NCBI GenBank assembly: GCA_963920765.1
Contig: OY987252.1
Span: 1,242,501-1,306,500, forward strand
Length of the DNA stretch: 64,000 bases
Reading direction: 5' to 3'
Source of the DNA: Ulota crispa
Taxonomy: Eukaryota; Streptophyta; Bryopsida; Orthotrichales; Orthotrichaceae
Positions 9,266 to 64,000 of the stretch are shown piece by piece. Position 1 is the first letter of the stretch. Each line of letters starts with the position of its first letter. The notes below the pieces were generated by a model, which was not told the DNA's origin, searched no databases, and saw nothing but the letters and a program-made list of their open reading frames with translations. The position numbers were made by a program, and so were the translations under genes.

Positions 9266-9269
9266 AAAT

Positions 9270-17090: not shown

Positions 17091-17229
17091 AGTGACTACA
17101 TAACAATATATCTGACTAAGCAAGAATCGTGGCATGACTGGAGCTAGTCACAATATGACTATCATCAATCAAATTCTAGGACATATCAGTCTATACAATC
17201 TCTATATCTCCGGTTATGAATCAAAATTA

Positions 17230-17750
17230 AAGCCAATGAGATCACCAAGCAAAATACTAAGCATCAGGAGTCATCACCAAAGCTTAGCATCTTTGAAACT
17301 TTGTTGCCCAAATAAAAAATATATAAATAAAAAACTTGAAGGTTGATTCTAGTTGCTCGCTTAGAGTAGCTCACGACCTTGCATCATGCGGACAAGAGCT
17401 AGCATTGCATCACCAAATCACCAAACTACCAAGTCAAAAAAAAAAAACTTGAAAACATTGAGCCAATCCTAAGTGCTTAAGCGAGCAGCTCATGGCCCTG
17501 CATCACAGACAAGCTAGCATAGCCTCACCAAATTGTCAAATATTCCAAGTCAAATAAAAATTGAAAATGCATAGACAAGTCTAGCTCTTCGCTTGGAGCT
17601 ACTCAAGGCCTTAGTCACATGGACAAGCTAGCATAGCATCACCAAAACACCAAAATATCAAGTAAAAAAAAAATGGAAAATGTAGAGAGCCAATTCTAGC
17701 TGCACAATTGGAGCAACTCACGGCCCAGCATCACCAATGCTAACTAGCAA
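17230..17750 (+). repeat. ~115-bp tandem repeat, about 4 units
   Basis: Units share the order AGCTAGCAT(T/A)GCATCACCAAA, an AAGTCAAAAAA tract, a GAAAA(C/T) segment, then GCGAGCAGCTCA-like words. Unit boundaries fall near 17351, 17471 and 17582. It begins shortly after the CACTA-ended element. Confidence 0.6.
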
Positions 17751-19284: not shown

Positions 19285-19430
19285 ACTACAAGTAGAATGT
19301 GGTCCTAATTGACACAAAGTTGACATAATTGTGTCAATTGTTGTGTTGTTTAGAATGTGGTGATTAGGACGTCTTTTTTGACCAAAAAATATGTCAATTT
19401 TCACAAGAAAGTTGACATAATTATGTATTT
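19285..19430 (+). repeat. Short CACTA-ended repeat, copy 2
   Basis: Begins CACTACAAGTAGAATGTGG and parallels 14231-14383. It is followed by CACTAGTAGAAAA at 19433, a further CACTA-like word. Confidence 0.45.
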
Positions 19431-20129
19431 ACACTAGTAGAAAATTTAATAAAAAATAAATTGTTTTTCTATTTTTTTTGTTATTTTTTTCTTAATATTT
19501 TTTTTTGAAAAAAAAATCTATACGTGAAGAAATACAGCTCTAGGCTTGGCCAGGGAATGTGGCCGCGACTCAATCCATGGTCAAGGCATTAGTCCAAAGC
19601 ACGGGAGGCAAGGTTCAAACTTCAAACTTTAATGTTAAGATTCTACCACCTTAAACCATGACCACATACCACTGGACTACTTACATTTGCACATGCACTT
19701 CTAGGAATAATAATGAATTTTTACTCTACACATGAATGTTATTGTTACTTTGCAAAGCCAATAGACTTTGAAGGCTATTTCGGCTTTGTAAAGGATTTTT
19801 TTTCAAGAAACTCAATATTACAAAAAGTTGGTTTATGTAGTCTACTTTCACTTCCAACAATATTTTTTGGATTTTAATCTTTTAATCTTTTAATCAAAAG
19901 TGCAAAAATCATAGAAGATGTACATGAGTTTTAAGAAAGGTTTTTATTTTCACCCTTTTGATTTCTATTATAGGTTTTGATTGGAATACATAGATCTCAA
20001 AAGTAATATTGCAAGTGAAATTTGATTTTGGTTTTAATTTTTGTAGTTCTAATTTATTTGAAAAAACCCCCTTAATAAGTAAAAATAGCCTATAGTTTGT
20101 TGGCTTTTAACACTAGTAAAAATTAGATT
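19431..20129. other. Unassigned AT-rich sequence
   Basis: Long A/T tracts; no gene recognised. Confidence 0.3.
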
Positions 20130-35791: not shown

Positions 35792-38700
35792 ATGGAATTC
35801 TCTCATTTGCAAGATATGAGCACCTCATTTGCGCTAAGAATGGAGTACTCTTCTGATGAGGATATCATCTAGAGTGTGCCAATGGATATTTTTGAGATGC
35901 CTGACTGCAAAAGTATTCTTCAACATCATTGGATTATAAGCGTTGTCATCCTTCAAAATGAGTTTGGTGTTTTTGTTGCCAAAAGCATATGTTACAGTAT
36001 TAACTTTGAAGCTGTTGTTGGAAGTAGTGGTCCTGTGGGTGATTCCAAAGTCGCAGTCTAGATTTCAAAGAGTTTATTTGTTGCCCATATACAAAAGGAG
36101 TGGAAATACTCCATGTTTGCTTGGCCAATTGAGAGGGTTTACTTGAATGGTGCAAGTCTTTGAGATCACAAAGTTTGGTATGAGTACAATCTTCAGCAAG
36201 CCAATTTGTCTCAGCCATCTTCTGAAGGTTCCAAACCATACAATACTTCTGTCAAAGTTCCTCCACCACACGTTTCTATGAAAGGCAAAGAACTTCTCAC
36301 ACAAGATTCAATCCTACTTGTTTCAAGCAATGTTTGTTGCTCCAGCAACTATGTACAACCATTTCCAAGGGAAAAAATCAAGGCATTTTGAGAGCGTGTG
36401 TACAACAAGACAACTTTTGAATTTTGATACCATATGAAGTTGGATGTTCATCAACAAATACACCAGAATTTTGAAGGGAAGAATGTGGTCACTACCAACG
36501 AGATTGACATATGTCTTATAGCATGGAGGCCTATTTTTGGTGTCCCAGAATCTATCTTCCATCGGTTTCAAGGATATGCAAATTTGGGAGGACGTGCTCA
36601 ACCTCATGGCAATATAAGGATGCAGAAAACCAAGAAGCATTTTTTGCAAGCCATTGCACCTTTGAGGTGCATGCTGGACAAGTCAGCAAGCCATATGCCT
36701 CAAAAAATTGGACAATACTTTCTGGTGAGAAACTCGTTTGTAGGGTTTTGCCAGCTATATTCAAATGGATGGACACCATTCTTGAGATTAATGCAGTGAA
36801 TGCTGTGTTTGGGTTGAAAGGAGTTTCTCCTTCTAATGTCAATACAACTAGGAAAAGGAATTTCCTAGAGTTCAATGCAAAGAAACCAGGAGACAATTTT
36901 GCGCGCTGCTCAAAATGTAATCATCTAAAAACCCTTAAAATGAACTCTAGTATTCAATTGAAAATAAAATGGAAAGATACTTTAGACAAGCATTTGGCTC
37001 TAGCACAATCACATTGTGACCTTTATTATTCAAACCAATATAGATCCAAGGCATTTCCTCACAAAGTTTTGGCAATCATACATGACAAAATGGATCATGC
37101 AAAAACTGCTTCTCCGTTGTTTTCACATAAGAGCAAGCAATTAGATGGGCTCTTTAAATTTTCGATGTCAATGACAGGTACAATTGCTCATGGGCATGGT
37201 GATGTGCAATATGTGCATTACGGTCTAGACATCTATCCTCACAACTCAAATTATATAGTAGAATCACTTGCAAAACTTTTGTGTGACCTTGAGCTACCTC
37301 CAAAATACTCATCAAGGGATTTATTTGTAGGGTCTAGATCTGCTCCTCTTTTTAAAGCTACGTTAGAAAGCAAAAACATTTGCAATCATTCTTTACACCC
37401 ATCTCTAGCAATCCCAGTTCTAGCCACCCATTTACCCCTAATTTTAAATATTCAAATGGATAATGCCACTGGAGACAACAAGAATAGATGTGTATTTTCT
37501 CTTTCGTCTCTTTTTGTTACAAAAAATATAATTTGAGAGGTATATGTGAGTTTCATGTTGGTAGGGCACACACATGACGACATTGATGCTTTGTTTGGGA
37601 GATGGAGCATGAATTTGAAAAAGGACAATTTTTCAACCATGTCACCTCTCATGAAATCATTCATGGATGTGGACCCTATGTTAGTGATTCCACATCTCAT
37701 TGAAGAAGTGCTAGATTTCAAAACCTTTAAAGAAGATCATCTTTTATAAGGTGATGATGCACTTGTTGGCATGGTTGTTACATTGGGTTGCCCGTTTGCC
37801 TGCCTGCTCGTACGCCCAAAATGTCTAATTGAGGTCACAATCCGTCCGATGAAGTCAACTCATAGTTGACTTTAAAAAATTATTGAAAGTGATAAAAAAA
37901 CTTACTTCATACATGCTAGTGACACTCATTGTTGCCATCATGAAGTCAAAATGGGGATTCAAAGCCATATCATGTGATATAAATGAAAATTTATAATTTG
38001 ATATTTCCATTTTTAGGTCAAAAATCCTAAAAATGCCCTAATTAGCCTGTTTGGTCTAATTTGTCTACCCGTACTGTCTGATTTGTTTGCCAGTCCGTGT
38101 TGTCCAACAACCTCAACTTGTGTGAAGTAACAACCCTGCTTGTTGGCCATACCAAGGCACAACAGTTCAAATTTTATGTAGATTCTACATGGTGTCCAGT
38201 CATGAAATATAAGAACTATTGCACTGACAAGGATTGATTGCTATAAGAAAATATAGGAATAAAATTGTGGAGAGAGGATTTTCAAAGACAAAGTTTATGG
38301 CTGTGCGGAGTGCCAATGCTTGTTGCCCACGTTCAAATGCATAGCATAGAAGAAGACATTTTGGAAGGATTGTCTGGGTTTATCAATTACTGGGAAACAA
38401 TGCCACAATGCTAAAAGCAGAGAGTATCGGCGACGCCACAAGCATTTGATATTCTATTAGTGAGCAATGGAAGTGACCTTGCAAGAGCCAATTGAACCAG
38501 GTACTTTGTTGAATGACGGCTTCTGGCCCTCTACTCAACTAGAGGAGTCTAATGATGACCAATTAGTTGAAAACGGTGAGAGTTGGGAAGAGTTTGCTGA
38601 AGATGAAACTTATGTGGGAACACTATGCAATCGCTCACAGTAGTCATTTTGTGTGGCACAAGATGTTTATGAAGGCTATTTCTTTGCTAATTGACCAGAA

Positions 38701-39027: not shown

Positions 39028-39519
39028 CATGCAAAGAAGAGAGAAGTTTCTTTGTATGGTTAAAGTTTCTTTAGATAGTTTTTATTGAATCTACTTTTTC
39101 ATAGAAATGTTTTGTTATGCAAGCAGTTTTATAAAACAACTTATATTGTAAATGATATAAACTAGGTTTTGTGATTTGATTTTATAAATTAATTATGGAA
39201 AACATAGATGAAGTGTATATTTGCATTGCAAAGCAATTGATACTATGTTGTTATCACTGTAATTATATTTTATTATATTTTATAAACTTTTTTGTGCCAA
39301 AAATATACATGATTTTCAAGTGTTTGACAATATATAATTGATTTTTAAATTAACTATAATTTAAAAAGTTAGTGGTGAACAAAGACCGCTTTTTTGTTTT
39401 GTAAGCGCAAAAAGCACTTGTTACAGTTTTTGGAGGCTGCTTGGTTGTTACAACTTTCCTGCCTGCCAGGCTCATTTAGCAGCACCAAATTATGAATATC
39501 TAGAACTAGACTTTTGTAT
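39028..39519. other. 3' flank of DUF7869-like copy 1
   Basis: AT-rich. At 39436-39466, TTGGTTGTTACAAC followed by CCTGCCTGCC resembles the left end of the hAT-like MITE (37770) and of 55637, a possible truncated copy. Confidence 0.35.
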
Positions 39520-47379: not shown

Positions 47380-48030
47380 CATTGGCATAATGCAAAGTTG
47401 AGTGGCTCAATTTGGCAAAAAGTCCCTATTTTCAAAGTCCTTTAAGTGAATATAAGGATTTTGATTCCAGTATTTATTTGTAATTACATCAAGTGTCTAG
47501 GCGGCTAAGTGACCTCTCATGTCTAGAATGGACCCATAAACTTAGCCAATGGCCTAACGTTTTCAGATTTTGTTCTTTTTCAAATTATAAACTGCAAGCT
47601 ATGTTCTAGGGTTTAGACTTAAATGAATTAAAGTTATTCAAAAAGTCCTGATTGCTAAAGCACCTCTAGAACTTAGAACATATTCAAGTTGAAAAAAAAA
47701 GTAGGAAAGAGTAAAAGATAGAGGAGAAAAAGACTTTGTAAGATCCAAGGTTAAAAAAGGCATCAAAAAATCCTTTGCAAGCATTCAATACACATTTAAA
47801 AAACAAAATTATAATTTCTTCAAACTTTACCGAAATACCCACTAGAAACATGGTCCTTTGTATTCTCTTAAATAACTAAATCATCTTTAAAAAGTCCTTG
47901 AAAAACTTGCAGACATTAGAAATGTCACACTTTTTTTTTTTCAAAAGTCCACACTTCCATAAAATGCCAAAAACAAATTTGAACAACATTATTGTAGTTA
48001 CAATAAAGTTTTAGTCTTTGCAATGGACTT
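47380..48030 (-). repeat. Repeat R, copy 2 (uninterrupted)
   Basis: Inverted copy of 9270-10790 without the 837-bp insertion. The junction near 47605 reads TTCTAGGGTTTAGA, that is CCCTAGAA present once, and is the empty site for element copy E. It ends immediately left of the palindrome region of DUF7869-like copy 2. Confidence 0.65.
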
Positions 48031-48080
48031 TCATGCCATATTCAACTATTTTTGGACTATGGCAAGTCTAGAAATAATAA

Positions 48081-48320
48081 ATACCAAAAATCCCCCAATG
48101 CAATGGATCAAGAGATTTCCAATGGTTAGAGCATACTAGAGTCTTGTACACTTGTTCCTTGGTTGTGCATCAACAGATACAACTATATTGGGGGATATTT
48201 CCATTGTAAATTGCAAAATCCAATGTTGGAAAATGAACCATTGGATGTGTACAACATCAATTTCATTTGTATCGAGAGATCCTCTGACGTTATCCCACTA
48301 GACATCTCCCAATGTATCCA
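48081..48320. repeat. Degenerate outlying palindromes
   Basis: 48270-48289 (TATCGAGAGATCCTCTGACG) is a diverged site of the CATTGGGGGATCCCCCAATG family. 48091-48100 retains only the right half TCCCCCAATG, and 48304-48314 a half-like ATCTCCCAATG. Confidence 0.45.
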
Positions 48321-48792
48321 AGGAGACCCAAAGGAAATCTGCGGATGTATAAAGCCACTACTACTTGGCTATTCCTTTTGGCATTTTTGGAGTCAATGGT
48401 GATGGAAATTTGTTGAGCTTGGAATACACAAATAATAACATGATTAAAAGATTGTACAAAGCTTGCAACCTCCCAAAGAAGAAAATAATGAAGAATTCAC
48501 AATCATTATGAGAAATTAAGAATGACTACATTGCTATAGAAAAAACCTTGTCAAATGACCACATGCATTTGTACATCACAATTAAACTTCAATAGCAAGG
48601 GATAGGCATAAGTGAAAGGTCTCAACACAATAGACAACAACCTCACAGACATAACAAAGGGTACAATCAGTGATTACCAAGATAGTTTTATTGGCTTTTC
48701 CAATTCGAGTGTCCATTGAACAAGTCCTTAAAAGAATTGAATAAAATGAAATCTAAAGTAACCTTGACAATCAATGTACAATGAACACTGGG

Positions 48793-49005
48793 CCACAATC
48801 CCTAAAGCCTAAGGAAACATTGGGGATCTCCCGATGAAAGTGAATCCCTGACACCACAACCTAGGTAATCATTGGGGGATCCTCCAATGACAATGAGACC
48901 CAGACACCAGAACTTGAGGAATCATCAAGGGATCCCTCGATGAAAGTTCACCCCTGACACCACAACCTAAGGAATCATTGGGAAATCCCTAGTTGAAAAT
49001 GAAAC
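48793..49005 (+). repeat. 53-bp tandem repeat carrying one palindrome per unit
   Basis: Four units with exact 53-bp steps (the word CCC(T/A)GACACC at 48846, 48899 and 48952). Each contains one palindrome: 48818-48836, 48870-48889 (CATTGGGGGATCCTCCAATG), 48923-48942 (CATCAAGGGATCCCTCGATG) and 48976-48995. The palindromic part is conserved while the spacer also repeats, so these arose by tandem duplication. The array lies just past the C-terminal end of the DUF7869-like gene on minus. Confidence 0.85.
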
Positions 49006-50948
49006 AATAAAGCCCGATACTTGATCAAGGATCTACTTTGTTGAACTTATTTAAATTCACTAATGCAGCTTCACGGCATTTCCTAGAAATCATCCGCGTC
49101 TTTGGATTCACGATCTTAGACCATTTGGAATATACTATAGAACTTCCATCCACCCAAGTGGAAGAACTATTTTCAACTATCCATATTTCAAACCAGTAGT
49201 TACGATATTGTTGTTGAAGACTACTTTCAGAGTTATTTGGTTGCCAGTATTAAAGAAGCAACTTCCCGTTATTCTCATCTCCCTCCACTCTGTAGACAGT
49301 GGCAAGAGCTCTTCCTAACCACATAGCACATAGCATGGGGTTCTTAGGTATGAGAAGAACCCACAAGCCAGGTTAGATATTGAGCCAAGGATTAAAGCAT
49401 TGCCGTGGTGCTTCATTTGCAGGGCCGCAATAAGGTTTCGGCTCTTCTTCTTCATGGATGACATCCATTGGATTAACCGTTCTCCTTGGGCAAGAGATAT
49501 ACAGCCTCCAATTGTGTTTTGGCTAGAAGCCTTCTACCAAGCCAAATGGATTGTCAAATAGTGGCCCCTTGAGCTCACTCAGCACACGATTCCAATATTC
49601 TACATATGGTCCAAATACAATAGCAAAGGCTTTACTTCTTGACATACCATTCTTCTAGAAATCAATGTACTTCTCCACTCCTACTAACATGAAACTCTTG
49701 TTCAGTGTAGCTTTGCAAACCAATTCCATAGCCTTGTCTTGGTTTCCTGTAGCCTTAGGAACTTTGCTGCCTCAAATGTGCTTGAATGGAACAAGTTTTG
49801 GATTCCTTGGTGGAAGCATAGACCTGCCGTTGCTGTCTCTCTTCTAAAGGCAAGTAGAAGGCTTATCAGCTAGAAGCCAATGTGAATCAACAACTAACTT
49901 CTTGTATCTCATAACTAGCACCGCCTCATTGTCTACATAGAATTGGAAGAGGTGCATTTCACCCAACCCAATTAATCTGGAGGATCCGCTGCTTATGTAA
50001 CCCTTTACATACGATTTGAAGTCCCCAACCTCCTATGCAATCTTTGACATGACTGCCACTTCTTGCGATTGCATGAAGGCTTGCATCAAATCAGCAAGTA
50101 CAAAAGTGTTTTTGCTCTTCAAAGCTTTAGAGAGATGACTGAAATAAGGGTCAATGTCCTTGTGAGTGTGTCCAACCAATAGAATTCCAACTTGGATTTC
50201 TTTGAAGACATCTTGAGCAGTGAGAAGGGACAAGAATGCCATCAAATACTAGTTCTTGTTGTCCTTGGTAGAATTGTCAAGCTGAAGGTATAATATTCTA
50301 GGCAATGGTGCACTTCCTAAACAAGCTCTCGGTTCAGTCAAATTCAAACTATTGATAAACCTAGACTTTCCATGGAGACGAGCATCTAACAATAGATTTG
50401 CTAGCAAATATGGAAAAATGCCGCCTGTTTCACGTATTGGAGGTCCCTCCAATCAGCTAATTAATCTAGCTACCAAAAAAACAGTAAGTTTGAATCACTT
50501 GGCCAACAAGAAGGAGCATAATGAGTGTATGCACCATCACCGTGACCATGTACTACCATACCAATTATGCTAATGGGAAGCTGCCCAAGACCTTGTGTAC
50601 TTTTTGCTATCAATCGCATTTTCAGGAGAGTGATTTTTGCTGTGTCCATCTTGTCGTGCTCACACAAAGAATTTCCCTTGGGTTCCGTTTGGACTCCTCA
50701 TACCAAGAATAATACAGCATATGGCACAAATTTTGGTGATTGAGATGTGCAGTACGCTATATCATGAATTCCATGTACTTTGGACTCCCTTTTGGAGTTT
50801 TTAAAAGGAACCGTTGAAGCTGGTTGCAAGTACTACACTTTGCAAATGTGCTTCCAAGAGGCTTAATAGAGACATTATTGAAGAGTTCCTTCTTAATTTG
50901 ATTGATAGTAAACTGTCTCATAGGAGGAAGCCCATAATCTACGTGTAA

Positions 50949-51199
50949 CTGTAAAACCAAATAGACATGAATTCAGCATTGAAATCAAATGGAACAAAGG
51001 AAAACGTAGAACAAAAGGTATAGCAAAAAAGGTTGCTCATTAGCACTTTATAAGATAATTAGTCACCCAAATATCCTATTGGGGGATCCTCCAATAAAAT
51101 GCAGCAGAGTACATAAAATGAGAGCCAAACACTCCAAATAACATATTGGAGGATCCCCTAATGACTCGTAGCAACGCGAGAGTAGGGAAGCGGAACTAC
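50949..51199 (-). other. Phase-0 intron of DUF7869-like copy 2, containing two palindromes
   Basis: On minus the exon ends AATGAG|GTAGTT and resumes after GGTTTTACAG with TTACACGTAGAT. The exon frames before and after (…CADVNE and LHVDYGLPPM…) join in phase 0 and match the uninterrupted frame of copy 1. Two palindromes sit in the intron: 51077-51096 (TATTGGGGGATCCTCCAATA) and 51144-51163 (TATTGGAGGATCCCCTAATG), 67 bp apart. Confidence 0.75.
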
Positions 51200-52081
51200 C
51201 TCATTAACATCAGCACAAACGCGCTTCCAGTTATTCCTAGCTGGAAGATATTTTAGAGTATCCATTCTTTTGTTATTGATGCTGCGCATTTGGTGGGGCA
51301 TTTGATTGGCGCTCTTGTCAATGATTGCTTTCATGGTTCCCATGACCAGAGCAGTTGCAATCCTAGGACATTTAATCCCTTTATTTCCATGGGTCCTAGA
51401 TATGACGCTGGCCTTGTACAATTTGATGTAATCATGATACATTGACTTCAAAATTCCGTGTATTTTATGCCACACCACCATGCACACCTCAGCTCCATCA
51501 ACTGTGATGAACTTGCAATTTCTTATCCCGTCGATGTTATGAATCTGCCCACCCGCAGCAATCTCGTATTCCTAGCAGTCTTCAAATGACCTGAGATTAA
51601 AATTTTGTCTGACCTTCAAAGACAATTCTTGAGGGAAAATTTGACAACACTGACTTTTGTAGCACTTCAGAGAGCTAACATTCCAAATTTGTTCTTCTTG
51701 AGTTTTAATAACATACTAGGAGTCTTTGTTGCAGAGACTTGGCTTTTGCACAATGAAATGATACGGTGCATTCAACCGTCCACCGAGATATGCTAGGGGA
51801 TCTTGAACAACTAGTATAGCTGAGAAATGTTCCAATGTCTCTAGTAAGGAATGTCCATCAAGGAACCAACATGAAGATACTGACCACCAAGAGTGAGTCA
51901 TAATAGCATCCTTATTTCCCAAAAAAACATCAAGGACAGTCACTCCTATGACATCTTTACCTAAAACTCCCCCGTGGAAATGATTGTCTGGCCTGTAGCA
52001 ATTTACTCTGCCTAAAGACAAAAGCTGTCCCTTTGCATCCTTCCAGTGGACTTCAAGGCCTACCATAAAAGGATACAAGTC

Positions 52082-52101
52082 CATCCGGGGATCCCCCAAT
52101 G
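52082..52101. repeat. Palindrome site inside the coding exon
   Basis: CATCCGGGGATCCCCCAATG differs from the consensus at two left-half bases. On minus it is read in frame as part of the peptide KSLGDPRMD within the N-terminal exon of DUF7869-like copy 2. Confidence 0.7.
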
Positions 52102-52644
52102 ATTTCACAACACCAAATATCCGCCATAATATAGTTTGGTCTACAACATCCCCTAGCATCCTCAAATCCCTTTGACAAGGGTCAAAAGACAAAGTACGAG
52201 CAACTGCCACTATAGATAAGGGTCGGGCAAGAATGAACATCCAGGATTGCAATGTAATGATCAGCCCAAGCCATTGACCCATAGGACAAGCTTCCACAAC
52301 ATGACCCTGACCAACTTCCCTGAATCCAGCAATGAATAGGTTGATGGCATCTCCATTACAAGTTGATTTTGAATTGTCATTGGAATTCTGAGATTCCTAC
52401 TCGGAGGGCGGGATAACTCCAATGGGCACTACAGCATGTACAATTGATTTGTTGAAGGAATCCATGTTGCTTGCCACAATTTAGATTTGTGCACTAATAA
52501 GGGTGACCTCCAAAATCAAGAATCTCAGCTTGCACAGTGCATAGTAGTCGTAAATTAATTGTTGCCCAAAGGTCAAATTAAGCCTTCAAGATTGAAGAAA
52601 ACATCAACAACAGTGGATTCATTAAGTCAAATACCACCAACCTC

Positions 52645-53303
52645 TATCTGGGGATCCTCCAATACCAAATTTCTAAAATCACAAAAATAAGAATCAACTA
52701 CAAGGGAGTGCAAAGAAAGCATTACTTTGCAATGTAATCAAATACCAACTTGTATCAGGGGATCTCTTGATGAATTGATTCATATGATTGAACAAGACAT
52801 ATGTTTATTGGGGGATCCCCTAATAATGATATTTCCAAGTTTGGGCAAGACATAGGTTTGGAGGGATGGCGGTGGTGTAGTGATGCTCAACAATGAGCAG
52901 GACCCATTGGGGGATCTCCCGATGCAATGTTGCCCATAAATGAGCAATGCATCTGGGGATCCCCCAATGTTAAGGTTTTAATAAAGTTGAAAGACCTACA
53001 TCTAGCGGCAGATCCCCGAATGCAGAGTGGCAAACAAATGAGGTAGACAGATCCTAGAGTAGCCAATGAAGTGTATTAAGAAAGACGTATTGAGGTATCC
53101 CTTGATGAAGTGGTGCCCATAACTAACAATGACCTATCAAAGGATCCCCCAATGCAATTGCTCTTAATATGTAGGAAGAGTGTCATTATAGAGGGATCCG
53201 CCTATGCTACTAAAGAATCCACCAATTCCTAAAGTGATTTGTGAAAGTCCCACATATTTTCAAAAATTCATCAGAGTAGTCTGTATCGAGGGATCCCCCA
53301 ATG
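52645..53303. repeat. Upstream array of 10 palindromes (CATTGGGGGATCCCCCAATG family)
   Basis: Sites at 52645-52664, 52753-52772, 52806-52825, 52905-52924, 52950-52969, 53003-53022, 53088-53107, 53135-53154, 53187-53206 and 53284-53303. Spacings are 108, 53, 99, 45, 53, 85, 47, 52 and 97, that is about one or two ~50-bp steps. The spacers do not obviously repeat, so the palindrome itself appears conserved. The GATC centre and the half-site CCCCAATG are the best-kept parts. The array lies upstream of the DUF7869-like start on minus (52465). Candidate binding sites for the encoded protein or subterminal repeats. Confidence 0.85.
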
Positions 53304-54749
53304 AGGTCAATTTATCAAAGTAGAACAATTATATGGAGCCCTTATCAATTTACTGGAGTGTACAACATAGAGATGCCAAGTACTGTCCCATATCTACTGT
53401 GCAACAGTCCTTACCCTGATGAATTTACATTTTACAGTGAACATGTATGCAAATACATGACTTAGAAGAAGTTTGTGAACCCTCATTAGTCCGTATAGAG
53501 GAGGACAATACCCAATGACACATGCAGCTCATATTTACTTATCCTAAAGATATACGGACATATCAACACGTGCTGAAAGATTTTCATTGATTTCTATAAT
53601 TGCATTCATTGGTACTTCATAATCAAAATTCCTTGCATAATGTGCTTGTCCATTACATCTCAGTGTGTGAGCACCACAGCAACTACCAATTTAATGCACC
53701 TTACAAAAAGAAAACTGATTGTGTGAGCCTCTTTGCACGCCTGCAGTAGATCTAGTGCATCCTACAATTACAAGGGGGCAATGCATTTAATCATCTACTG
53801 CAAAGTGTTGAATATCTGATGCAAGTTTAACTGAAGTATTTGAATCCGACAAGGCGCAAATTATCACGAGCAGATATCCAGTGAAAATTATGGACAACCT
53901 TGATGCTTTCCTCCTCGCCAGTCTTCAACGTGATCTACAGAGCAACTATGCCCAAAAGCGCTGCTCCTATTCAATTGCAAAATAGGATGCACCTCCTCTT
54001 CTTTTCTAAATCTACCTAATTGATTCCAGACTACAAAACTGCAAAGTGAAGACTAAGTTTACTGATTCTTGGCTTGATAATGCAACAAATCCCTTGGCCA
54101 CAATAAAGTCTATAGGCTGCATGAAACACAACAATGCAAAGCGCTATCAATGACGCATAGAAAGCAAGCAAAGAGCAATATCAAATAAGGGAGCATAGCA
54201 TTATGGAAGTAGGATTCTTGATTTTGGACGCGAGGTGGGAATCCCGCCAGAATTTTTTTGAGGAAGTTCTTGATTTTCAAATTCAATCCCGCCATTCAAA
54301 TTTCAAATTTCAAATTGGTCTTGCAGCTGTTGCTATCCATGATTGATGAACTATAGTCATGGATAATTTCCTATACGGTAACTTTGAATAAGTGTGTAGC
54401 CATTCATTATTCTCTGCCAACTAAATAATGATTGTAATAATTTATAGGAACAAGTTAATCGACTTGAATTAAGCACCATTCACAGTATGCATTCACAATA
54501 ATTCATTCATTGAAACAAAATTCAAATGTCTTGAGAAACTTGATCATGTTTACTGTGAATCATGTCACATGGAAGTCACTGATGTATATGAGTATTTATT
54601 AAACACAATGAAAATTGATTTGCTTAATCTAGTTTGCCATAAACACCAAAATCACATAAATCCTTGCATAAAACATACTTAAAGAAGATTAAAATCTCAT
54701 CATAAGGGTTAGTGGGTCAACACTACCTTTTTGTAGAATAATTCTCCAA
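53304..54749. other. Unassigned sequence beyond the palindrome array
   Basis: No palindromes of the family and no recognised gene. The outer boundary of the copy 2 element presumably lies here, but no TIR was found. Confidence 0.3.
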
Positions 54750-55036
54750 GTTTCACCCCATTCCAAATGTTTTTGCTATTCTATTTGATTGAACTTGCCA
54801 ATCTCTTTAATTAAATAGTGTAGGGTAAAGGGGGTCACCATTCATTTCATGTCATTTAACTCCACAAAAATTCCACAACGTCCCTTAGGATACAATTAGC
54901 ATGTGCTGCAAGTTTCACCCCATTCCAAATGTTTTTGCTATTCTATTTGACTGAACCCCCCCAATCTCCTTAATTTGAAAAGTGTAGGGTAAAGGGGGTC
55001 ACCATTCATTTCATGTCAATTAACTCCACAAACAAA
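54750..55036 (+). repeat. Direct duplication, ~125 bp, offset 162 bp
   Basis: GTTTCACCCCATTCCAAATG through GGTAAAGGGGGTCACCATTC and TTAACTCCACAAA occurs at 54750-54873 and again at 54912-55036 with few changes. Confidence 0.8.
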
Positions 55037-55636
55037 TGAATGTGTTTTATGCTTCCCTAAACATAAGGTGCAAATGTCCACTCCATTCTTATTGAATCTT
55101 TAAACTACCTATACTTTTGTTTTGAATGAGATTTTGAGTTATGCATATTATCTTTATGAACCAAAGTGATATGTTCAGACTATATGTCAAAATTCTAAAT
55201 ACACTCTTTATTGTGAACAATATTGGTTAATTGCCCTCTAATCTAATTTTTTTAATCTGGAAAATCATGTACACTTAGTGAGTGTTAATAGAAGGATAAG
55301 CTCCATTCAATTATGTCCATTGCTAGAGTACTACCCGGCCATGGTAATGTGAAAGGATGCTTTCATTACAATCATTATGATAGTAACCCCACCCAAAACT
55401 AGAATTCTCAGTAACAACCATTATGAGGTGGAATAGCGGCTAGACAATGATGGCGCTCCCAGCCGGGAACTCTAGCCCGTTTCTAGAAAGGAAACTTCAA
55501 TTGTCTTTTCCCCCTGGTTCGGCTTTCAAGAGTCATTCTCTCCCTCCAATGTTCTTGCAAAAGCGCTGCGTGAGCGTTGCGTTTGTAAGCATTGAGCATT
55601 GTCTACAAGATTTGTGTGAGGTTTTGTTGCGGCGCA
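55037..55636. other. Unassigned sequence
   Basis: No gene recognised. GTAACAACCAT at 55411-55421 is the inverted form of the hAT-like end that appears at 55637. Confidence 0.3.
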
Positions 55637-55745
55637 TATGGTTGTTACATCAAGCCGCTTGTCCGCTAGCCTGCTTGCCTGCCTGAAGTGCCCGATTGAG
55701 CTCATATCTATCCAATGTGGTCAACAAATAGTTGATTTCAAGAAT
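55637..55745 (+). mobile_element. Left-end fragment related to the hAT-like MITE
   Basis: TATGGTTGTTACAT, then the GCCTGCTTGCCTGCC, AATTGAG-like and AATAGTTGA(T/C)TT blocks follow the order of 37770-37880. No right end was found, so this is either a truncated MITE or the left end of a larger element that includes the following module. Confidence 0.5.
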
Positions 55746-55910
55746 AGGGTAAAAGGGAAGGACGTGGAGTTACCTGTGTAGTCGTTGGCTGGCGGGTGTA
55801 CATGCTAGCAGGCGGGAGAGGAGGTTGGGCGCCAACGCAAAAGGGAAGGGCACCAATGCGGCAAAGGCAAAGGAGGAGGGTGCCACGCACATGCGGTCGC
55901 CGAGGTAGAC

Positions 55911-56100
55911 GCGGACAAAGGTTCGAAGGGCACGGACGAAGGTTTGGAGGGCGCTGATGAAGGTTTGGAGGGCGTGGACAAAGGTTTGGAGGGCGTAGAT
56001 GAAGGTTTGTAGGGCACAAACAAAGGTTTGAAGGGCGCGGACATTTGGCCTAGGCGCGGGTAGAGGTCTGCAGGGTGCCGACGCTTGGCTAGGGTGCGGA
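55911..56100 (+). repeat. 21-bp CpG-rich minisatellite
   Basis: Five consecutive exact-length 21-mers (55930, 55951, 55972, 55993, 56014) of the form GCGTGGACAAAGGTTTGGAGG, followed by degenerate units to about 56100. It encodes PSKPxSx heptapeptides on minus as a by-product. CpG-rich in an otherwise AT-rich window. Confidence 0.85.
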
Positions 56101-56561
56101 AATGGCTGAGATAGAAAGTTCTTTCAATTGTAAATTTGTAATGAGTAGCTGAAAAATAGAATGCAACATGATAAATAAAATTATACACCTTGAAGGAACA
56201 CACTGAGCAGGGTAAATTGGTAACTATAATATTAGCATAATTGTATGTTCATGTTGCTAAACTTTATATCAAAAATTTGAAGTGAAATATCAAAAATAGC
56301 ATAGCTTCTATAATTTTGACAATATTGACTATTGACTAAACAAAAGTTACGGTTACATATAAAGCATATCTTGTGGAAATATTAATCATCATTGCTATCT
56401 GATGAGATTACCATTGGATCATCATCGTGTGTTCCACTTGGTCCAGCTTCATTGTCATTAGTTCCTTGTGGATGTTGTTGCATGGATAGTGGAAGATTCA
56501 TATACAAGTTGCTCCATGTCACTAGTCCATCCACTCCAATCTTTTGATCTTCAATCATGGC
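56101..56561. other. Spacer between minisatellite and RING-finger ORF
   Basis: AT-rich with no recognised feature; 3' flank of the minus-strand ORF. Confidence 0.3.
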
Positions 56562-58768
56562 CTACAGAAATCTTGTTTCTTGAAATGCCAACATTGCGTG
56601 ATGAACTTGTGGGGTGACCTCTTCCAGCAAAAGGTCAATGGCTTCCTTCACGAACGCACTTGTCGACTCATCACATGAAAGTTTGACATTGTGATATGGA
56701 TTTGGGACTTCAATCTCAAATTCATCTTCTTCATAGTCTGGTCTCCCATTTGGGCGGAACAAGTCGCCTTCCTTTGACCAACAAAACTGTTGTGGATGTT
56801 CTATAAACTTAAAACACCCGTCCGTGGGACTGTAATGGCCACCAAAACATTGATAGAAGAATTGTCTTCTCCCCATAAGTTTAGGTCTTGGTCGCACTAG
56901 TTTCTTGCAAACTCTAACAATCTCCCTGGCATTTCTTTCCCACCCATGTCTCTTGCTTCTCAAGACTTTTTCCTGAGCATAATCATTCATCCGCCAACTC
57001 CAAACTACATCTTGCCCCTAGAATTTTGGATGGTGTGAAACAATAGATTCATTCATCTCCTAGCATGGCGGCATGCAATGGGTCAAGTTGAACATTTGAT
57101 ACAATCTAGGGTGGAAGGGTGCCTTGCATGCTACGCACCACATATGCATCACCATTAGGCTTATTAAACACTATGGATGGTACATGTGTGTGCATGTGCC
57201 TAACATTATTCCACCTTCTAGGCCAAATCCCTTGTAGCAAATATGGCACTTTGTATTGTCTTCAATGAAGGGAGTTGGATTTGGCCACAACTTCATCCTC
57301 TCATACTCGTACCTATAGAATGACAATGCATTCTCATAATCCCAACCATTCCTTGGCTAATTGATGACATTGTCCATGGTCCTCAAGGCCTTTGTTACTA
57401 ATTTGTCACTGTCAAATAGCTCATCCATGAAGGCCCGTGAAGTTATCCCTTAATTTTGTGATTTTCTTGAGTCAAAATACTCTTTTGAGATTTTGTCAAT
57501 CTTTGTCGCCATTTGACGGTTGATGTCCACATAGAGAAGGCAACCTAATTTACAGCTATACATTTGCTCCACAAGATTTGAAATGTCCTTCTTTGATGTG
57601 TCCTCCAAAGCTACAAATTTGGCTTGTGGTTCATTGTTTCTTGTGAATTGAGCATTCAATGTTTCTGTTCTATCCGGCACTTCTTTGCGTACACCTTCTA
57701 CCATAGTAAGTTCTAATATAATTGCATCTAGTGCCACGGTAGCTTCCTCCAATTCTTTGTGGAGCTTCTCAATTTCACCTTGCAATAGTAATATAGTATA
57801 CTGCTCTCTTCACGAAGTCTTTGTAAAGTCACATTTTCAGCTCATAACATATGCATTTCATTGCTCACTACATCTGCCATGGATGTTGCATTGCTGTCCA
57901 TGTATACCACATGTGGAATTGCTGGTACTGGATGTAATGGGCTATTTGGTGCTGACGCCACTCCCATGTCATTGTCACTATCATTTCCATCTAGTAGGGC
58001 GTTTGTGCTAGGCCCAGCTGCAGCTAAAACTAAATCTGAAACTAATGTAGGCACCTGCCGGACTTGCTGTCTTCCAGCATTAATTGCATCTGCAAGTAAT
58101 CTAGGCACTTGCACATCTTGGAACTGTTGTCTTTGACTTGTATTATTTGTATTGTTGTTTAGGATTCTAGGCTTTCTAGGCCTAGGTGGAGTGTGAGTCC
58201 CATTGGAATCGTCATCCAAAGAAGACGGCGGCTCATAAGGTGGTACATGATCATGCGCTTTTGATCTAGTTTCACTCAAACCGCCATTAGGAAACTTCCT
58301 CATTTCCATAGGTATGAATCCATTTTGGGGGGGGTGGAACAATCATATTAGGCTTTGACCTTTGACAGTTGACCAATCTACTTGTTTGTGAAATTTAAAC
58401 TCTGCCCATACGCCCCTACAAATGAAAAGTGCAACTTTGTTTTGACTTACAAATGCACTGTCATACATGACTTGATACACTTCAATACAATGCTCCTTGA
58501 ATGCCTTGTCCGTGCAATACTTCAACTTTCCTTTACTCAAATGTCAATTAAAATAGTGCCGATCTTTTGTGAAATCTTTATTGATGTGGCACCATTTGAC
58601 GTAATCTGGGCAAACATCGTAGGTCTATGGATCTTCAACATCTTTGTATCCTCAAAACCTAATCTTAGCAGGGTTTTCATATACATGAAGACACCTCTTT
58701 TGGAGCATCCTTCTTTGTTTTCTGGTTTTGTCTTTAGCTTGTTTCCTCCAAGCTGCTTCCGTTGCCAT
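56562..58768 (-). pseudogene. Unknown transposon-like ORF with coiled coil and RING-type finger
   Basis: From an ATG at 58768 (MATEAAWRKQAKDK, very basic) one frame continues with stops through YVKWCHINKDFTKDRHYF, then CTDKAFKEHCIEVYQVMYD, a Pro/Ser-rich acidic linker (58342-57842), a frameshift near 57800 and a coiled coil (IEKLHKELEEATVALDAIILEL, 57780-57715). At about 57261-57125 comes a cysteine/histidine cluster: CHIC, then C-T-H-x3-H, a stop, C, and finally WCVAC. This spacing (C-x2-C-x12-C-x-H-x3-H-x2-C-x10-C-x2-C) fits a RING-H2 finger. A 142-codon tail ends at 56562. RING domains usually act in ubiquitin transfer or protein contact. The family is not recognised. About 735 codons; five or more stops. 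Confidence 0.5.
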
Positions 58769-58979
58769 CTTACGAATTTACCAAAAACATATGGAACATG
58801 GGAAGTGTGGGTGTGACATTCGTGATTTGGTAAAAGTTACCAAAGGTGGTAAGTGTTTGTACGCAAGCTGTACATCCCACCAGCTCTAGCCAACCAGCTT
58901 GCAAGAAGTGGAGGAGAGAAGAACTAGTGAGGTAATGAGTAAGGGCGCAGACCCTCCTTAAATATGAGCAAAGTTCTAG

Positions 58980-59790
58980 CGGGTTTAGGGGCGCCAATCA
59001 TCCGCGCAGTAATCACGGATAGGCGCCAATGCTATTGGCTGGGGCACAAATGGCCAGACCGAAGGCGCGGACACAGCCAGCTCAGGTGACCAACCAACAT
59101 AGATGAAGTGGAGGTGAAAGGGAGCAAGCAAGGTAACAATGGTAGGGGCGTGGACCTCTACATGTACGTGCGAGGTTGCCAAGTCGGAAGAATTGAGGGT
59201 GCAGACGTTTTGAGTCTAGGCGCAAACAAGCTAATGCTGGGCAAAGATGCTAATATTTGAGGCACAAATGCTTATAATTGGGGCGCGGACACAGCGTATC
59301 AAGGCACGGACACCACGCGGGCACAAGAGGCGCAGATGTTCGATGTAGAATCCCATAAACAAGGCGCATACACCAAGGATTGGTGCGTTAACCTAAGACA
59401 CCGCGGACTTTAGGTGTTGGGGCGTGGACGCTTTCTACAGGGACGTTGACGGTATTACTAGGGCACGGACAACTTCTACAAGGGAGTGGACGACTACTCT
59501 CGAGGCGCGGAGCACTGCTGCTACAACGCTAATATGGGATATAGGGGCGCAAACAATGGATGGAAGGGCGCAGATGGATGGTACCTAGGTACAGACAGGT
59601 ATGGTACATGGGCACAAACGTATTAGGTACCCTGGAGTGGACATTTGACATACCAGGGCGCAAGCATTTGAGGTACTAGGGTGCCGACACTTGGTACCTG
59701 TTTGCAGACGGGTGGTACAAGGGCGCAAATGCTCAATACTAGGGCATTAACTCCAGGTCTTGGAGTGCGGAGCATTGTTGGTATAAGCGC
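58980..59790 (+). repeat. Degenerate ~21-bp minisatellite (GGGCGCGGAC) between divergent genes
   Basis: Words of the type GGGCGC(G/A)(G/A)AC recur about 25 times, many at 20-22 bp steps (for example around 59400-59530 and 59620-59760). Same orientation and core as the array at 55911. It occupies the interval between the start of the minus-strand RING ORF and the start of the plus-strand ORF, so it may be the shared promoter region. Open frames across it are artefacts. Confidence 0.75.
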
Positions 59791-60000
59791 CAACACGTGT
59801 GTATGGGCACGGACGCACCTTTCCAAGATTATAAAAACCTCACCTTCCCATTCTGAAGTCACTTTGCACCCCTCTCGATGCCCCAAGTGTCAGCTTGCTT
59901 GCGGCCTGAAGTTAGTGGCTTTGAAGGATTTGGGTGCTTGGCGCTTTGGTGGTGGGAGAGTTATTGAATTTTTTTTTGAGATTTTTGTGTAATTCTAAAC

Positions 60001-61566
60001 ATGTCAACGTTTGGGAGTGCCTTGTCTGGCAAGCAACTTGTTTATGAAGATTTGGATTTGTCTGAAGAAACTATAGTGCCTGCAACAAATCCCTCCATGG
60101 CTTTAGGATCTTCTACTCCTATAGCTGGTAGTACCAAGAAAAAAGCAAAGGTTGTAAACCCTAATTGGCCTACATTACCATACACTCACAAATGCTGGTC
60201 AATTGCAATTGATTTCTATTAAACATGCAGCATTTGCGATTTGGAGAGGGCATTTTTCAAGGATAGAGAAGTTGGCTACCTCAGACTCATACAAGAATTA
60301 GAAGAAGCTGTAGAAAGGCTTGAAGGAATAGAGGAGTTCAACAATTACACAGACTTTTGTCTTTCTTATGAATGGTTGCATAGTATTGTGACGCAGACTA
60401 CCACAAACATTGTGGAATTTTGGAAATATTTGATGAAGAAAGATCCAAAAGACCCAAACTTGACAGTTGAGGAGAAAAACTTGATCACAGTCTTAAAGTT
60501 TGTACAAGATAATAGTCAATTACACTCCAAGTCTCGCAACAAGTGGCCTGCTTAGATGCACACTAAGGAAAAAGATCTTGTAGAGCAAGGAGTGAGAGGT
60601 CATGTGGGGTATCTACCTTTAACGGTGAAAGTTAAACTCATGGCGGGATAGGTTTTGGAAGGAGCGTATGGGACAATCCAAAAAGTGAGAATTATACATC
60701 CTCAATTTATCCTTGAAAATCTTGATTTCATGGGGAAGAATTTGAAGATCAAAAAGAAAAAAGACAAAAAGCGAGAAGTGTGGGTGGAGTGCATGACATG
60801 TCTTGTGTCACATGTAGGCATCATTTGGCCTATTTTCATCAATCTAAGGTCAATGGAGGCATATTTGCTTTGGTGGAGTGGTGGATCACTATAATATTTT
60901 TGGAAGAAATATGACTCAAAAGTCCCCAAAACTTTACACCTCAATGAAGTTTGGGAAGACACAACTTCTAAGCTAAACTAATTCAAGTTGGATTATTTTT
61001 ATTGCTATTAGAAGAAACGTATGAACTTGGCATTATCCTTGTTGATTATAGTTTTGACATGCCATGTGTATAGATACATGCACAACAACCTCTCTCTTTT
61101 AAATGTATTATTATACTTTGATACTTGGAAGGACGACACCGCATACATTGGATTATGTGATTGGAGCATATCTAGCCGCATCATTGAGTACAAGCCGTTT
61201 AAGTACAGATACCCTAATATGGAAATGCTAAAGGAAGAGCGATTGAAACAGCCATTTGGTGCTCCGGAGTTGTTCTACGTCTACAGTGCACAGAATAGCA
61301 AAGAATCACTTGACATTGTACAACAGAGGCACTTGTATTCTACTGCAAAAGAGTTGTACTTGGCAGGCTAGGTAGCTGCACAAATTTGGCAAGATGATTA
61401 TGATGCAAATTACTTCAGAAAGAACTGTATCCATATTTAGCAATTCATTTCAGCATTAGCAAGCTTGCAAGATCCAGATCCTAGACAAAGGGCTATAGTC
61501 ATAGACATTGTAGATACAATGATGAAAGCGCCATACAATTGGGATATGCCCAGCTGGTGTTTTTGA
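60001..61566 (+). pseudogene. Unknown transposon-like ORF, divergent partner of the RING ORF
   Basis: An ATG at 60001 opens frame 1, which is followed without frameshift to a TGA at 61564-61566, about 521 codons, with stops at 60220, 60553, 60649, 60892 and several others between 60979 and 61440. N-terminus is Ser/Thr-rich with a basic patch (STKKKAKVVNP). Next come an acidic coiled-coil-like segment (LIQELEEAVERLEGIEEF), FWKYLMKKDPKDPN, a basic cluster GKNLKIKKKKDKKREVWVE, and a C-terminal region with EYKPFKYRYPNMEMLKEERL and YSTAKELYLAG. I do not recognise the family. The single retained frame suggests it was under coding constraint until recently. Confidence 0.5.
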
Positions 61567-61974
61567 CTTTCATAGTGCACATGAGTCTATCATATGCATG
61601 GATGTACCTCCATTTCACAAATTAATTTGAATGGAGTAGTTAGGATTGTAATTTGATACAACAACTCTTGTAGGACTTGTATGGCAGCTTTGTTGTTTGA
61701 GGTTTAATCACTTGTGTTTTTTTGTGAAATCTATACCTAATTGATTGATTATATTTGTGTCATTTGCATTTCATGTACTTTACAAATGAATATACCTTTC
61801 TATAATCCCTAGTGGTTAAAACTTAACAATCATGAATATGTAATATTCTTTCCAAAAGTTGTAGAGAACAATATAATGATACTTAAAATAATTACTGTAA
61901 TACATATAACTTTGAATGAACCGGTTGCTTTGCTAACATAGGGCCTTGAGCCTTTCAAGCCATTTGGGGGTTAA
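61567..61974. other. 3' flank of the plus-strand ORF
   Basis: AT-rich, no recognised feature. Confidence 0.3.
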
Positions 61975-62345
61975 CTATTGCGCCCCAAATTCATTCATTG
62001 CGCTCCTCCTTAAGCGTCCGCGCACCTACATTACCGTTCATGCCCCTCCTTATATGTTTGCGCCCCTTCTTTGGTGACTGCGTCCCTCCTTAGGCAACCG
62101 CACCCCTTGTGAAAAGAAATTGGTCCTCCTATGAGACCGCGTCTTTGTCAATGCGGTCGCGGCTGTTTAGAAAACACCACGCCCAACCAAGAGAGTATTT
62201 GGACCACCCTCTGCTATCGCGCTCTTGCTGCATCCTCGCACCTCTTGCGTCCACGCACTTGGTCCGTCCACGCTCTTGCTACGTCCACGCACTCGGTCCA
62301 TCCACGCACATGCTGTGGCACCTCTCGCGGCGTCAGCACCCAACA
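61975..62345 (-). repeat. ~21-bp minisatellite, inverted orientation
   Basis: GCGCCCC/GCGCTCC(T/C)-type words recur at about 20-bp steps. On minus they read as the GGGGCGC core of the arrays to the left. Orientation is opposite to 55911-56100 and 58980-59790. Confidence 0.7.
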
Positions 62346-62709
62346 TTCCAATAGCGAGCCACTGTCAGTGTTGGGTAGCTGAAGCAGTGTGGCTCTGCCA
62401 AAGATTCAGCGCTATAATGACGTCCTCCACGCCCACAGCATCCGCACCCTCCCTTTGTATTGCTTGCTTTGTAGAGTATAGCCGTACTATTGGGCACGCA
62501 ACCCCCTCTCATTATCTAGTTGCGGACTTGTGTATTTGCCATTAAAATAGAAAAGCAAAACCCTAAGCGACTCTTGTACTATCTAGTGAAACCATGAACT
62601 GCACAGTAACCCTGAATAATAAACCAAGAGTCAAATACCCTATATCCTAATCTCTAGGTTTGTTTAGTAAAACAAACTTTTCTTTTATATCTAGACCATT
62701 ACCATACGA
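62346..62709. other. Unassigned sequence
   Basis: No feature recognised. Confidence 0.3.
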
Positions 62710-62995
62710 CTTGTGAAATCAATGAATTAAATCAACAAGTGGAACAGTTACATGTAAAAAGAAATAAATTTATTCGATCAGTTCATATAGCGCTTGGGAA
62801 ATCAAGGAATTTAATTAAGAAGTGGAACAACTACATCAAAGAACATATAAATTTATTTGATGAGTTCATATAGCACTTGTGAAATCAATGAATGAAATCA
62901 AGGAGTGCATCAAATTACATGTAAAAACAAATAAATATATTTGATGACTTCAAATAGCACTTGTCAAATCAATGAATCAAATCAAGAAGTAGATC
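62710..62995 (+). repeat. 83-bp tandem repeat, ~3.5 units
   Basis: The word ACTTGTGAAATCAATGAAT and relatives start at 62710, 62793, 62876 and 62960 (steps 83, 83, 84), followed in each unit by AA(A/T)TCAA-GAAGTGGAAC, ATAAATTTATT(T/C)GAT and TTCATATAGC-like words. Confidence 0.85.
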
Positions 62996-63429
62996 CATGG
63001 AAGCCAACCCAATTTTAGGAGTGGTAATTTTTTTTTCATCAATATCAGATATGTGCCTTCAGCTTTTCCTAAGAAACATAATAATGAAAATAAAAGGAAT
63101 ACAATGTACTGGTAGTTTTTTGAGAAAATCCTATTTTAATTTATGTGTTGCTCATGCTTACTACAAATCTCCATTGTTTCCCAACAAGGATCTACTATTT
63201 TAGCACTAGCACAAGAAATGATAGTTCATGGTTGTGCTTACCGCCGAAAAACACATTTTAGCGCCCAACCAGTGGGCTCCAACTCTTGTGTGATTTTGTC
63301 AAGCTCCACTTCTCACAGTGTTGTCAGGCCTTGTTTGAAATGGCCCCCCCTTTTTGAAGGCGTCCTTCCATTGTTGGTACCCAATAGGCCTCCATTCTTA
63401 TGCTCCTTTGAAATGTCTATCTGCGCCCC
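62996..63429. other. Unassigned sequence before the last minisatellite
   Basis: AT-rich then increasingly C-rich; no gene recognised. Confidence 0.3.
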
Positions 63430-64000
63430 TACCTTCTTAGCGCGTGCCCCTCCCTTGTGTGGGCGCGCCATTATCCTCTCCATGCGCGACCTCCTTTCTC
63501 CATGCGCGCCCTCCCCTCTCCACTAGCGCCATTGTCTTACGGGTCTGTGGCATGTGTGCCTCCCATCCGACTACAAGATGTTTCCCTCTACATGTGCACC
63601 ATTCCCCTCGGAATTTGCGCCCTTGTCCTATGAGTCCAAGCCCCTTTGTTCTTTGTGCACGTCCTTCCATACACCATGTACAAGCCTTTGCATAATCCGT
63701 GTACGTGCCCGTCCCAGCAAAGTGCGCGCCTGTCCCCTTTGTGTGCACGCCCTTGCTCTTAGCATGCCCGCCCTTTGTGCTTACGTGCGCGCCATTTCCT
63801 TTTGTTTGAGTGCTATTGTTCCTCGCCTTTGCGGACTTGCCTTGCGTTTGCCCTTAAATCGTCAGTGTTTGCACCCGTGTCATCTGTGTCCGCCCTTCCC
63901 ATCTGTGCGCGCGCCCTTGCCTAAGGCTTGTGCGCGCTTCTTCCAGCGCAACATGCAGCATTAAACCGCACGCATGCCATTCCCATTAGGGTGCGTGCCC
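63430..64000 (-). repeat. CpG-rich minisatellite, inverted orientation, runs off the window
   Basis: GCGCGCC(C/A)TT(G/C)C-type words recur roughly every 20-25 bp. Overlapping frames on both strands are repeat artefacts. It continues past the window end. Confidence 0.65.

What the first reader, a model, noticed from the sequence alone, without database searches (positions are those of the whole stretch)
48270..53303. At least 18 copies of a 20-bp perfect-palindrome consensus surround a DUF7869-like gene
The consensus CATTGGGGGATCCCCCAATG equals its own reverse complement. I read 18 sites by eye: one outlier at 48270, four in a 53-bp tandem array at the 3' side of the gene, two in its intron, one in an exon, and ten at its 5' side. 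Spacing at the 5' side falls near 50 or 100 bp although spacers do not obviously repeat, which points to the motif itself being maintained. Dense subterminal motif arrays are known as transposase-binding sites in CACTA and hAT elements, but I know of none with a 20-bp palindrome centred on GGATCC linked to this gene family.
Basis: partly seen in the sequence, partly recalled or inferred. Interest (0 to 1): 0.88.

Follow-up and report, generated by a model that had tools for sequence, protein, structure and literature searches.

The report
Transposon family with coevolving palindrome arrays
A large two-gene jumping element carries many copies of its own 20-letter mirror-image DNA motif, and related elements carry altered versions that changed symmetrically across their sites, which suggests that each lineage makes a protein that recognises its own kind.

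Summary
The palindrome array is real. It belongs to a large DNA transposon of which the window holds only the left part. The element has 26-bp terminal inverted repeats (ATGCCATATTTAACTACTTTTGGACT) and 4-bp target duplications (exact in 6 of 9 end pairs, 0 of 72 mispaired ends). It carries a DUF7869 gene (a relative is predicted to have an RNase-H/DDE-like fold) and a divergent large gene 2. The window's copy runs from 48033 past the window end to C11:1377138, swollen by insertions.

Sites lie in both promoters, in introns, 3' of gene 1 and in an exon. They go with one DUF7869 subfamily (30 of 30 fetched loci), not with the others (0 of 25 at 5 mismatches or fewer).

Key result: one well-supported clade of six elements has changed the symmetric pair 6/15 to T/A at most sites (both letters in 26 of 33, against 0 of 217 in 24 other elements), including an orthologous intron site and 21 sites in stretches not used to find the change. 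Four other, mutually related DUF7869 loci carry four further palindromes. Best reading: cognate sites of an element-encoded dimeric protein, working like VANDAL/VANC self-recognition. Binding and function are inferred, not shown.

The parts
48033..48058 (+). left terminal inverted repeat, preceded by the 4-bp target duplication TTTC (48029-48032); the right end lies outside the window at about C11:1377114-1377138
   Evidence: pattern search; ends and duplication
48033..64000 (.). part of the element that lies in the window; 48033-54898 and 55184-55637 are homologous to the C4 copy, the rest up to the window end is mostly other DNA lying between the element's two ends
   Evidence: blastn of copies; end pair
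48817..48995 (.). 3' array: four palindrome sites at 53-bp spacing
49247..52471 (-). gene 1 (DUF7869 gene, broken copy): coding pieces 52471-51185, 50951-50661, 50653-49865, 49861-49247
   Evidence: tblastn with pieces of the C2 copy
49895..50314 (-). DUF7869 domain (PF25273), 120.6 bits, two TAG stops inside
   Evidence: C11:1292395-1292814
51077..51163 (.). two palindrome sites in the gene-1 intron (51077-51096, 51144-51163)
52082..52101 (.). palindrome site in exon 1, kept at the same place in 15 of 24 clade-A copies
50435..50454 (.). weak palindrome site in coding sequence (6 mismatches)
52645..53303 (.). 5' array: ten palindrome sites upstream of gene 1, spacing mostly near 50 or 100 bp

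Best explanation
The palindromes are cognate binding sites of a homodimeric DNA-binding protein encoded by the element itself. The element is a large two-gene DNA transposon: TIRs, 4-bp target duplication, a DUF7869 gene as likely transposase, and a divergent gene 2. By binding sites spread over its promoters, introns and 3' region, the protein marks copies of its own lineage and keeps them expressed against host silencing or controls its own genes, much as VANC does for VANDAL elements. Protein and sites change together, so lineages diverge in the motif. Shown: the element's structure, the confinement of the sites to the subfamily, and the lineage-specific symmetric change across sites. Inferred: that a protein binds, which gene encodes it (N-terminal part of gene 1, or gene 2), and that the effect is anti-silencing or activation.
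For: Sites in 30 of 30 fetched subfamily loci (29 of 30 with two or more) and in 0 of 25 others at 5 mismatches or fewer; none of the 50 listed best sites within 10 kb of 102 other DUF7869 loci; no site in the flank held outside the element ends in the C4, C7 and C2 copies. TIRs and exact 4-bp duplications in 6 of 9 pairs against 0 of 72 mispaired ends. Clade of six elements (support 100/99, one change on the tree, 0 of 500 shuffles) with T/A at pair 6/15 in 26 of 33 sites against 0 of 217 in the other 24. The orthologous intron site is T/A in 6 of 6 clade-B copies and purine/pyrimidine in all 11 clear clade-A copies. Of the 50 listed sites of the T/A form, 40 lie in those six elements, 21 of these in stretches not used to find the change, largely around gene 2 (tally by hand). 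Four mutually related DUF7869 loci carry four other palindromes. Dense arrays lie upstream of both genes in the C4 copy. VANC motifs lie in introns, intergenic and terminal noncoding regions and diverge between subgroups (PMC5735166).
Against: No binding or expression data. Between the window copy and the C4 copy the 5' sites are less alike than the spacers (0.78 of 197 against 0.87 of 517 bases; 3' array 0.80/0.80; intron 0.84/0.75), so no purifying selection is seen there. Only pair 6/15, and slightly 4/17, covaries beyond its marginals. Sites were counted by likeness to the clade-A consensus with a fixed GATC centre, which limits what variants can be seen. 21 of 25 non-subfamily loci show no repeated palindrome in the about 3 kb held.
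Confidence: 0.55

Rival explanations
1. The sites serve transposition itself: the transposase or an accessory protein binds the arrays to assemble the transposition complex, as recalled for TnpA of En/Spm or subterminal hAT motifs.
For: The motif follows the lineage of the DUF7869 gene; sites also occur near the left end.
Against: Sites lie in promoters, introns and an exon through the element. Three DUF7869 loci outside the subfamily lie within 15 kb of the same TIR (1 mismatch or fewer) but far from these palindromes, so end recognition and palindrome look separable.
Confidence: 0.25
2. A host DNA-binding protein, for example a silencer or activator, reads the sites.
For: Sites are in promoter positions; no element protein has been shown to bind.
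Against: One host factor would favour one motif; here the motif differs by element lineage.
Confidence: 0.1
3. The palindromes act as DNA or RNA structure (cruciform or hairpin), or are only a by-product of tandem duplication.
For: The consensus is self-complementary; part of the sites lie in 53-bp tandem units.
Against: A hairpin would accept any complementary pair, but variation is confined to certain letters (where the GATC centre was a condition). A scattered intron site carries the same change as the arrays. No Rfam match in the window.
Confidence: 0.06

Closest known systems
VANDAL transposons with VANC anti-silencing proteins, Arabidopsis (PMC5735166: abstract, part 1 of the results and section 9 read; PMC10398659: abstract and outline seen)
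   Same: A mobile element with repeated short motifs in introns, upstream and terminal noncoding regions; motifs in tandem units; related subgroups carry different motif versions that change together.
   Different: Here a 20-bp palindrome instead of the 9-base YAGTATTAY (the word palindrome does not occur in that paper's main text); DUF7869 gene instead of a MULE transposase; 4-bp target duplication; binding and anti-silencing not tested.
Sola DNA transposons (PMC10741241, one passage seen)
   Same: 4-bp target duplication, TIRs, DDD-type transposase, some elements over 15 kb, reported from a moss.
   Different: No sequence comparison with Sola transposases was possible; palindrome arrays are not mentioned in the passage.
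CACTA (En/Spm) and hAT elements with subterminal motifs (recalled)
   Same: Repeated binding motifs carried by the element.
   Different: Sites spread through promoters and introns; long palindrome; TIR and target duplication differ.

Membership tests
DNA transposon with terminal inverted repeats | terminal inverted repeats with a target site duplication | tested here: met
   26-bp TIR at both ends of 9 end pairs read; exact 4-bp duplication in 6 of 9, 0 of 72 mispaired ends; the three others: AAAA/AAGA, altered left end, none
DNA transposon with terminal inverted repeats | transposase with RNase-H/DDE-like fold | tested here: inconclusive
Sola | 4-bp target site duplication | tested here: met
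   6 of 9 pairs
Sola | sequence relationship to Sola transposases | not testable with these tools
   no Repbase or Sola profile at hand
VANDAL/VANC | MULE-type transposase and VANC domain (DUF1985) | tested here: not met
   Pfam scans of gene-1 and gene-2 pieces gave DUF7869 and only weak others
VANDAL/VANC | motif arrays in noncoding regions that diverge between related elements | tested here: met
VANDAL/VANC | element protein binds the motif and removes silencing | not testable with these tools
   needs binding and methylation experiments
CACTA (En/Spm) | ends beginning CACTA, 3-bp duplication (recalled) | tested here: not met
   ends begin ATGCC, 4-bp duplication
hAT | 8-bp target duplication (recalled) | tested here: not met
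   4-bp duplication; no pair matches at 5 or 6 bp
ParB-parS-like | ParB N-terminal domain in gene 2 | tested here: inconclusive
   PHROG ParB-like match E 0.011 in 1 of 8 homologs; no ParB family in Pfam, none in PDB by sequence, none against SopB alone; model too poor, pLDDT 44.5; PF02195 genome search did not complete

The most novel reading that the evidence does not exclude
DUF7869 transposons have evolved their own self-recognition code, each lineage pairing a dimeric protein with its own 20-bp palindrome; gene 2, with a possible ParB/sulfiredoxin-like region (motif reading recalled), loads at the palindromes and spreads along the element to keep it open, a eukaryotic transposon analogue of ParB-parS.
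Probability: 0.07. Interest if true: 0.95.

Novelty: new variant of a known kind. Interest (0 to 1): 0.77.

Why it matters
If true, one genome holds a natural series of protein-palindrome pairs: two versions inside one subfamily that follow the gene tree, and four more in another DUF7869 lineage. How a transposon tells its own copies from others, and how a DNA-binding protein changes specificity together with many scattered sites, becomes directly testable. It would also mean that a VANDAL/VANC-like strategy arose in an unrelated transposon group, and it gives DUF7869, a Pfam domain of unknown function, a likely role as a transposase.

Tried and rejected
Chance array or neighbouring satellite: rejected. 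One palindrome for all DUF7869 genes: rejected. Conservation of sites above spacers between two copies: not found. RNA family in the window: none. ParB reading of gene 2: weak, not confirmed; tblastn of one gene-2 homolog each against plasmids and phages gave no match; the fold search with the poor gene-2 model gave nothing usable. Subfamily gene-1 protein in the protein database: no hit at E 0.001, although another DUF7869 query gave 140. NCBIfam: no hit for two gene-1-type pieces or four gene-2 homologs. PDB by sequence: nothing usable. Palindrome TTTTAGTTGATCAACTAAAA genome-wide: of 18 sites at 0-1 mismatch 14 cluster at C2:7.40-7.45M and C5:0.54-0.58M, but the listed 2-mismatch sites are mostly a dispersed repeat. 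Palindrome ATTATGTTGATCAACATAAT: of 27 sites at 2 mismatches or fewer, 4 lie in 321 bp beside L053; most others are single copies of ATTAAGTTGATCAACTTAAT. Papers: DUF7869 occurs in no held paper; searches on VANC, Sola, subterminal or palindromic arrays and moss elements listed no paper that, by title and abstract start, describes this system; I did not open most of them.
Full report
OBSERVATION. The 20-bp palindrome occurs as described: 17 sites with 6 mismatches or fewer, all between 48817 and 53303, 8 of them with 3 or fewer where 100 shuffles give none. The site at 48270 is weak (8 mismatches). Genome-wide there are 219 sites with 3 mismatches or fewer, against 3 for the reversed pattern. 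That it is a plant, perhaps a moss, is my guess and was not tested.

CO-LOCATION. A search with gene-1 exon 1 (226 aa) gave 59 pieces, merged by me into 36 loci. All 30 loci fetched hold at least one site at 6 mismatches or fewer, 29 of them two or more. Of the 30 DUF7869 loci fetched in the family search, 5 belong to the same subfamily; of the other 25 none has a site at 5 mismatches or fewer and one has a single 6-mismatch site. One search lists 50 of the 219 sites: 45 lie within 20 kb of a subfamily gene 1 (chance about 0.5%), 2 more near a gene-2 piece, none within 10 kb of 102 other DUF7869 loci. Of the 3 left, C1:40297291 and C1:40298374 lie 1-2 kb from a DUF7869 match at C1:40299402; C4:20536758 stands alone.

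THE ELEMENT. Comparison of the window with four other copies showed homology beyond the reported coordinates, a common left boundary and a second gene in divergent orientation. Its N-terminal piece gives 36 matches, 33 after I merged pieces of one locus; 28 of the 33 lie within 45 kb of a subfamily gene 1, 27 of them divergent (5.6 to 37 kb), and 5 have none nearby. A later piece of gene 2 resembles NIF/FCP1-type phosphatases below the curated cut-off (E 0.056) and gives 36 matches. The left boundary used as a pattern gives 281 and 272 matches on the two strands, control 1 and 2. Inverted pairs bracket gene 1 and gene 2, for example C4:8624367/8640868 (16.5 kb) and, for the window's own element, C11:1290535/1377114 (86.6 kb). 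Nine end pairs were read: the TIR is ATGCCATATTTAACTACTTTTGGACT, with an exact 4-bp duplication in 6 of 9 pairs and 0 of 72 mispaired ends. Three pairs do not fit exactly: C11:1754673 (AAAA/AAGA), C2:1447609 (altered left end) and C6:352869 (none). In the C4, C7 and C2 copies no site lies in the flank held outside the element. Of 79 TIRs with 1 mismatch or fewer, 40 lie within 5 kb of a DUF7869 or gene-2 match, and 36 lie near neither at 20 kb; these may be shorter relatives.

WHERE THE SITES SIT. In the C4 copy (35 sites at 6 mismatches or fewer in the 15.6 kb held; joined coordinates) they lie near the left end (4603), 3' of gene 1 (5158-5315), in the gene-1 intron (7420, 7485), exon 1 (8429), upstream of gene 1 (8990-9627, ten), upstream of gene 2 (12974-13611, eleven) and further along the gene-2 region (16799-19522, six) (gene bounds; total). 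Over 40 loci the commonest spacing is 52-54 bp (88 of 273), with 106-107 (15), 81 (11) and 156 (9). 53 bp is about five helical turns.

THE COGNATE CHANGE. From 251 distinct sites with a GATC centre and 7 mismatches or fewer, the profile is close to YATYGRGG-GATC-CCYCRATR on both halves; pair 6/15 covaries (paired 0.586, expected 0.415), pair 4/17 slightly (0.490, 0.430), the rest no more than their marginals predict. The T/A state at 6/15 belongs to six elements that form one clade in the gene-1 exon-1 tree of 30 elements (FastTree 0.998; IQ-TREE 100/99; one change, 0 of 500 shuffles). I named the clade after seeing the tree with the motif counts. Clade B: 6T in 30, 15A in 29, both in 26 of 33 sites. 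The other 24 elements (A): 2, 2 and 0 of 217. The orthologous intron site is T/A in 6 of 6 clade-B copies. Of 24 clade-A rows, 11 have a clear site, all purine/pyrimidine at 6/15; 2 are doubtful alignments (C11_1.55, C8_12.9); 11 gave no site, in part because the fixed offset misses loci whose match starts late. The exon-1 site is kept in 15 of 24 clade-A rows and in no clade-B row with its GATC centre. A genome search for the T/A form gave 146 sites, control 3; 50 are listed (0-1 mismatch). By my tally 40 lie in the six elements, 21 of these in stretches not used to find the change; 7 lie in the C6:272-286k element, whose DUF7869 score equals that of the clade-B copy at C6:355k but which was not in the tree; 3 lie at C11:5.337M beside a gene 2 without gene 1, clade unknown. 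Of the 50 sites listed for the A form, two lie in a clade-B element, both hybrid.

OTHER LINEAGES. Among the 25 non-subfamily loci four (L050, L052, L053, L056) have 5, 6, 7 and 5 sites of one palindrome each, where 1,200 shuffles of the 30 loci never exceed 3: ATTTAGGTGCGCACCTAAAT, TTTTAGTTGATCAACTAAAA, ATTATGTCGATCGACATAAT, ATGTACATGATCATGTACAT. L050, L053 and L056 are 73, 70 and 69% identical to L052 over 141 aa of the domain. The other 21 show at most 3 sites of any palindrome in the about 3.4 kb held, which reaches only 1.5 kb beyond the domain.

MECHANISM. A symmetric, lineage-bound change at scattered sites points to a trans-acting dimeric reader that changed with its sites. Placement in promoters and introns resembles VANC targets, where a transposon protein binds such motifs and removes methylation (PMC5735166). 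I favour self-recognition for anti-silencing or own-gene control, with transposition-complex assembly as main rival. Against a simple conservation story, the 5' sites differ more than the spacers between the window and C4 copies (0.78 of 197 and 0.87 of 517 bases alike); decay of GC-rich sites after insertion is a guess. Gene-2 homologs exist elsewhere (8 proteins), with at most weak ParB-like (E 0.011, 1 of 8) and DUF6551 (E 0.011 at best, 2 of 8) signals.

KNOWN OR NEW. No held paper mentions DUF7869, and the searches named under Tried and rejected listed no paper on such a system. The 4-bp duplication and size fit Sola (PMC10741241, passage), but membership could not be tested. I rate it a new variant of a known kind.

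Noticed in passing
window 36508-37536 (+): A second DUF7869 gene (PF25273, E 2e-13) without this palindrome; a different palindrome-like sequence (TAGAGAGAACGTTCTCTCTA, 2-5 mismatches) recurs at 39037, 40263, 40322 and 40454, too few to judge.
   Followed up: partly
contig C11 (6.3 Mb, 2.3% of the genome): Holds 31 of the 141 DUF7869 loci tallied and 13 of the 36 subfamily loci, a strong enrichment on a small contig.
   Followed up: no
L065:4012-4367 and L069:8277-8450: Large imperfect hairpins (arms 133 and 85 nt) right at or near the gene-1 3' side of two copies; they look like inserted foldback elements.
   Followed up: no
genome-wide: Dispersed single-copy palindromes TTTTAGGTGATCACCTAAAA and ATTAAGTTGATCAACTTAAT, apparently from other repeats.
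   Followed up: no
C6:288986 and C6:354832: Two DUF7869 matches of equal score (122 bits) and equal open-frame length in opposite orientation, about 66 kb apart; perhaps a recent duplication.
   Followed up: no
L065+L066 joined 18227-18508: Gene 2 contains a stretch resembling NIF/FCP1-type phosphatases (PF03031, E 0.056, below cut-off), unusual for a transposon gene.
   Followed up: partly
window 55738-56123 (-): Short repeats that read as proline-rich repeats in several frames, inside the DNA between the element's ends.
   Followed up: no
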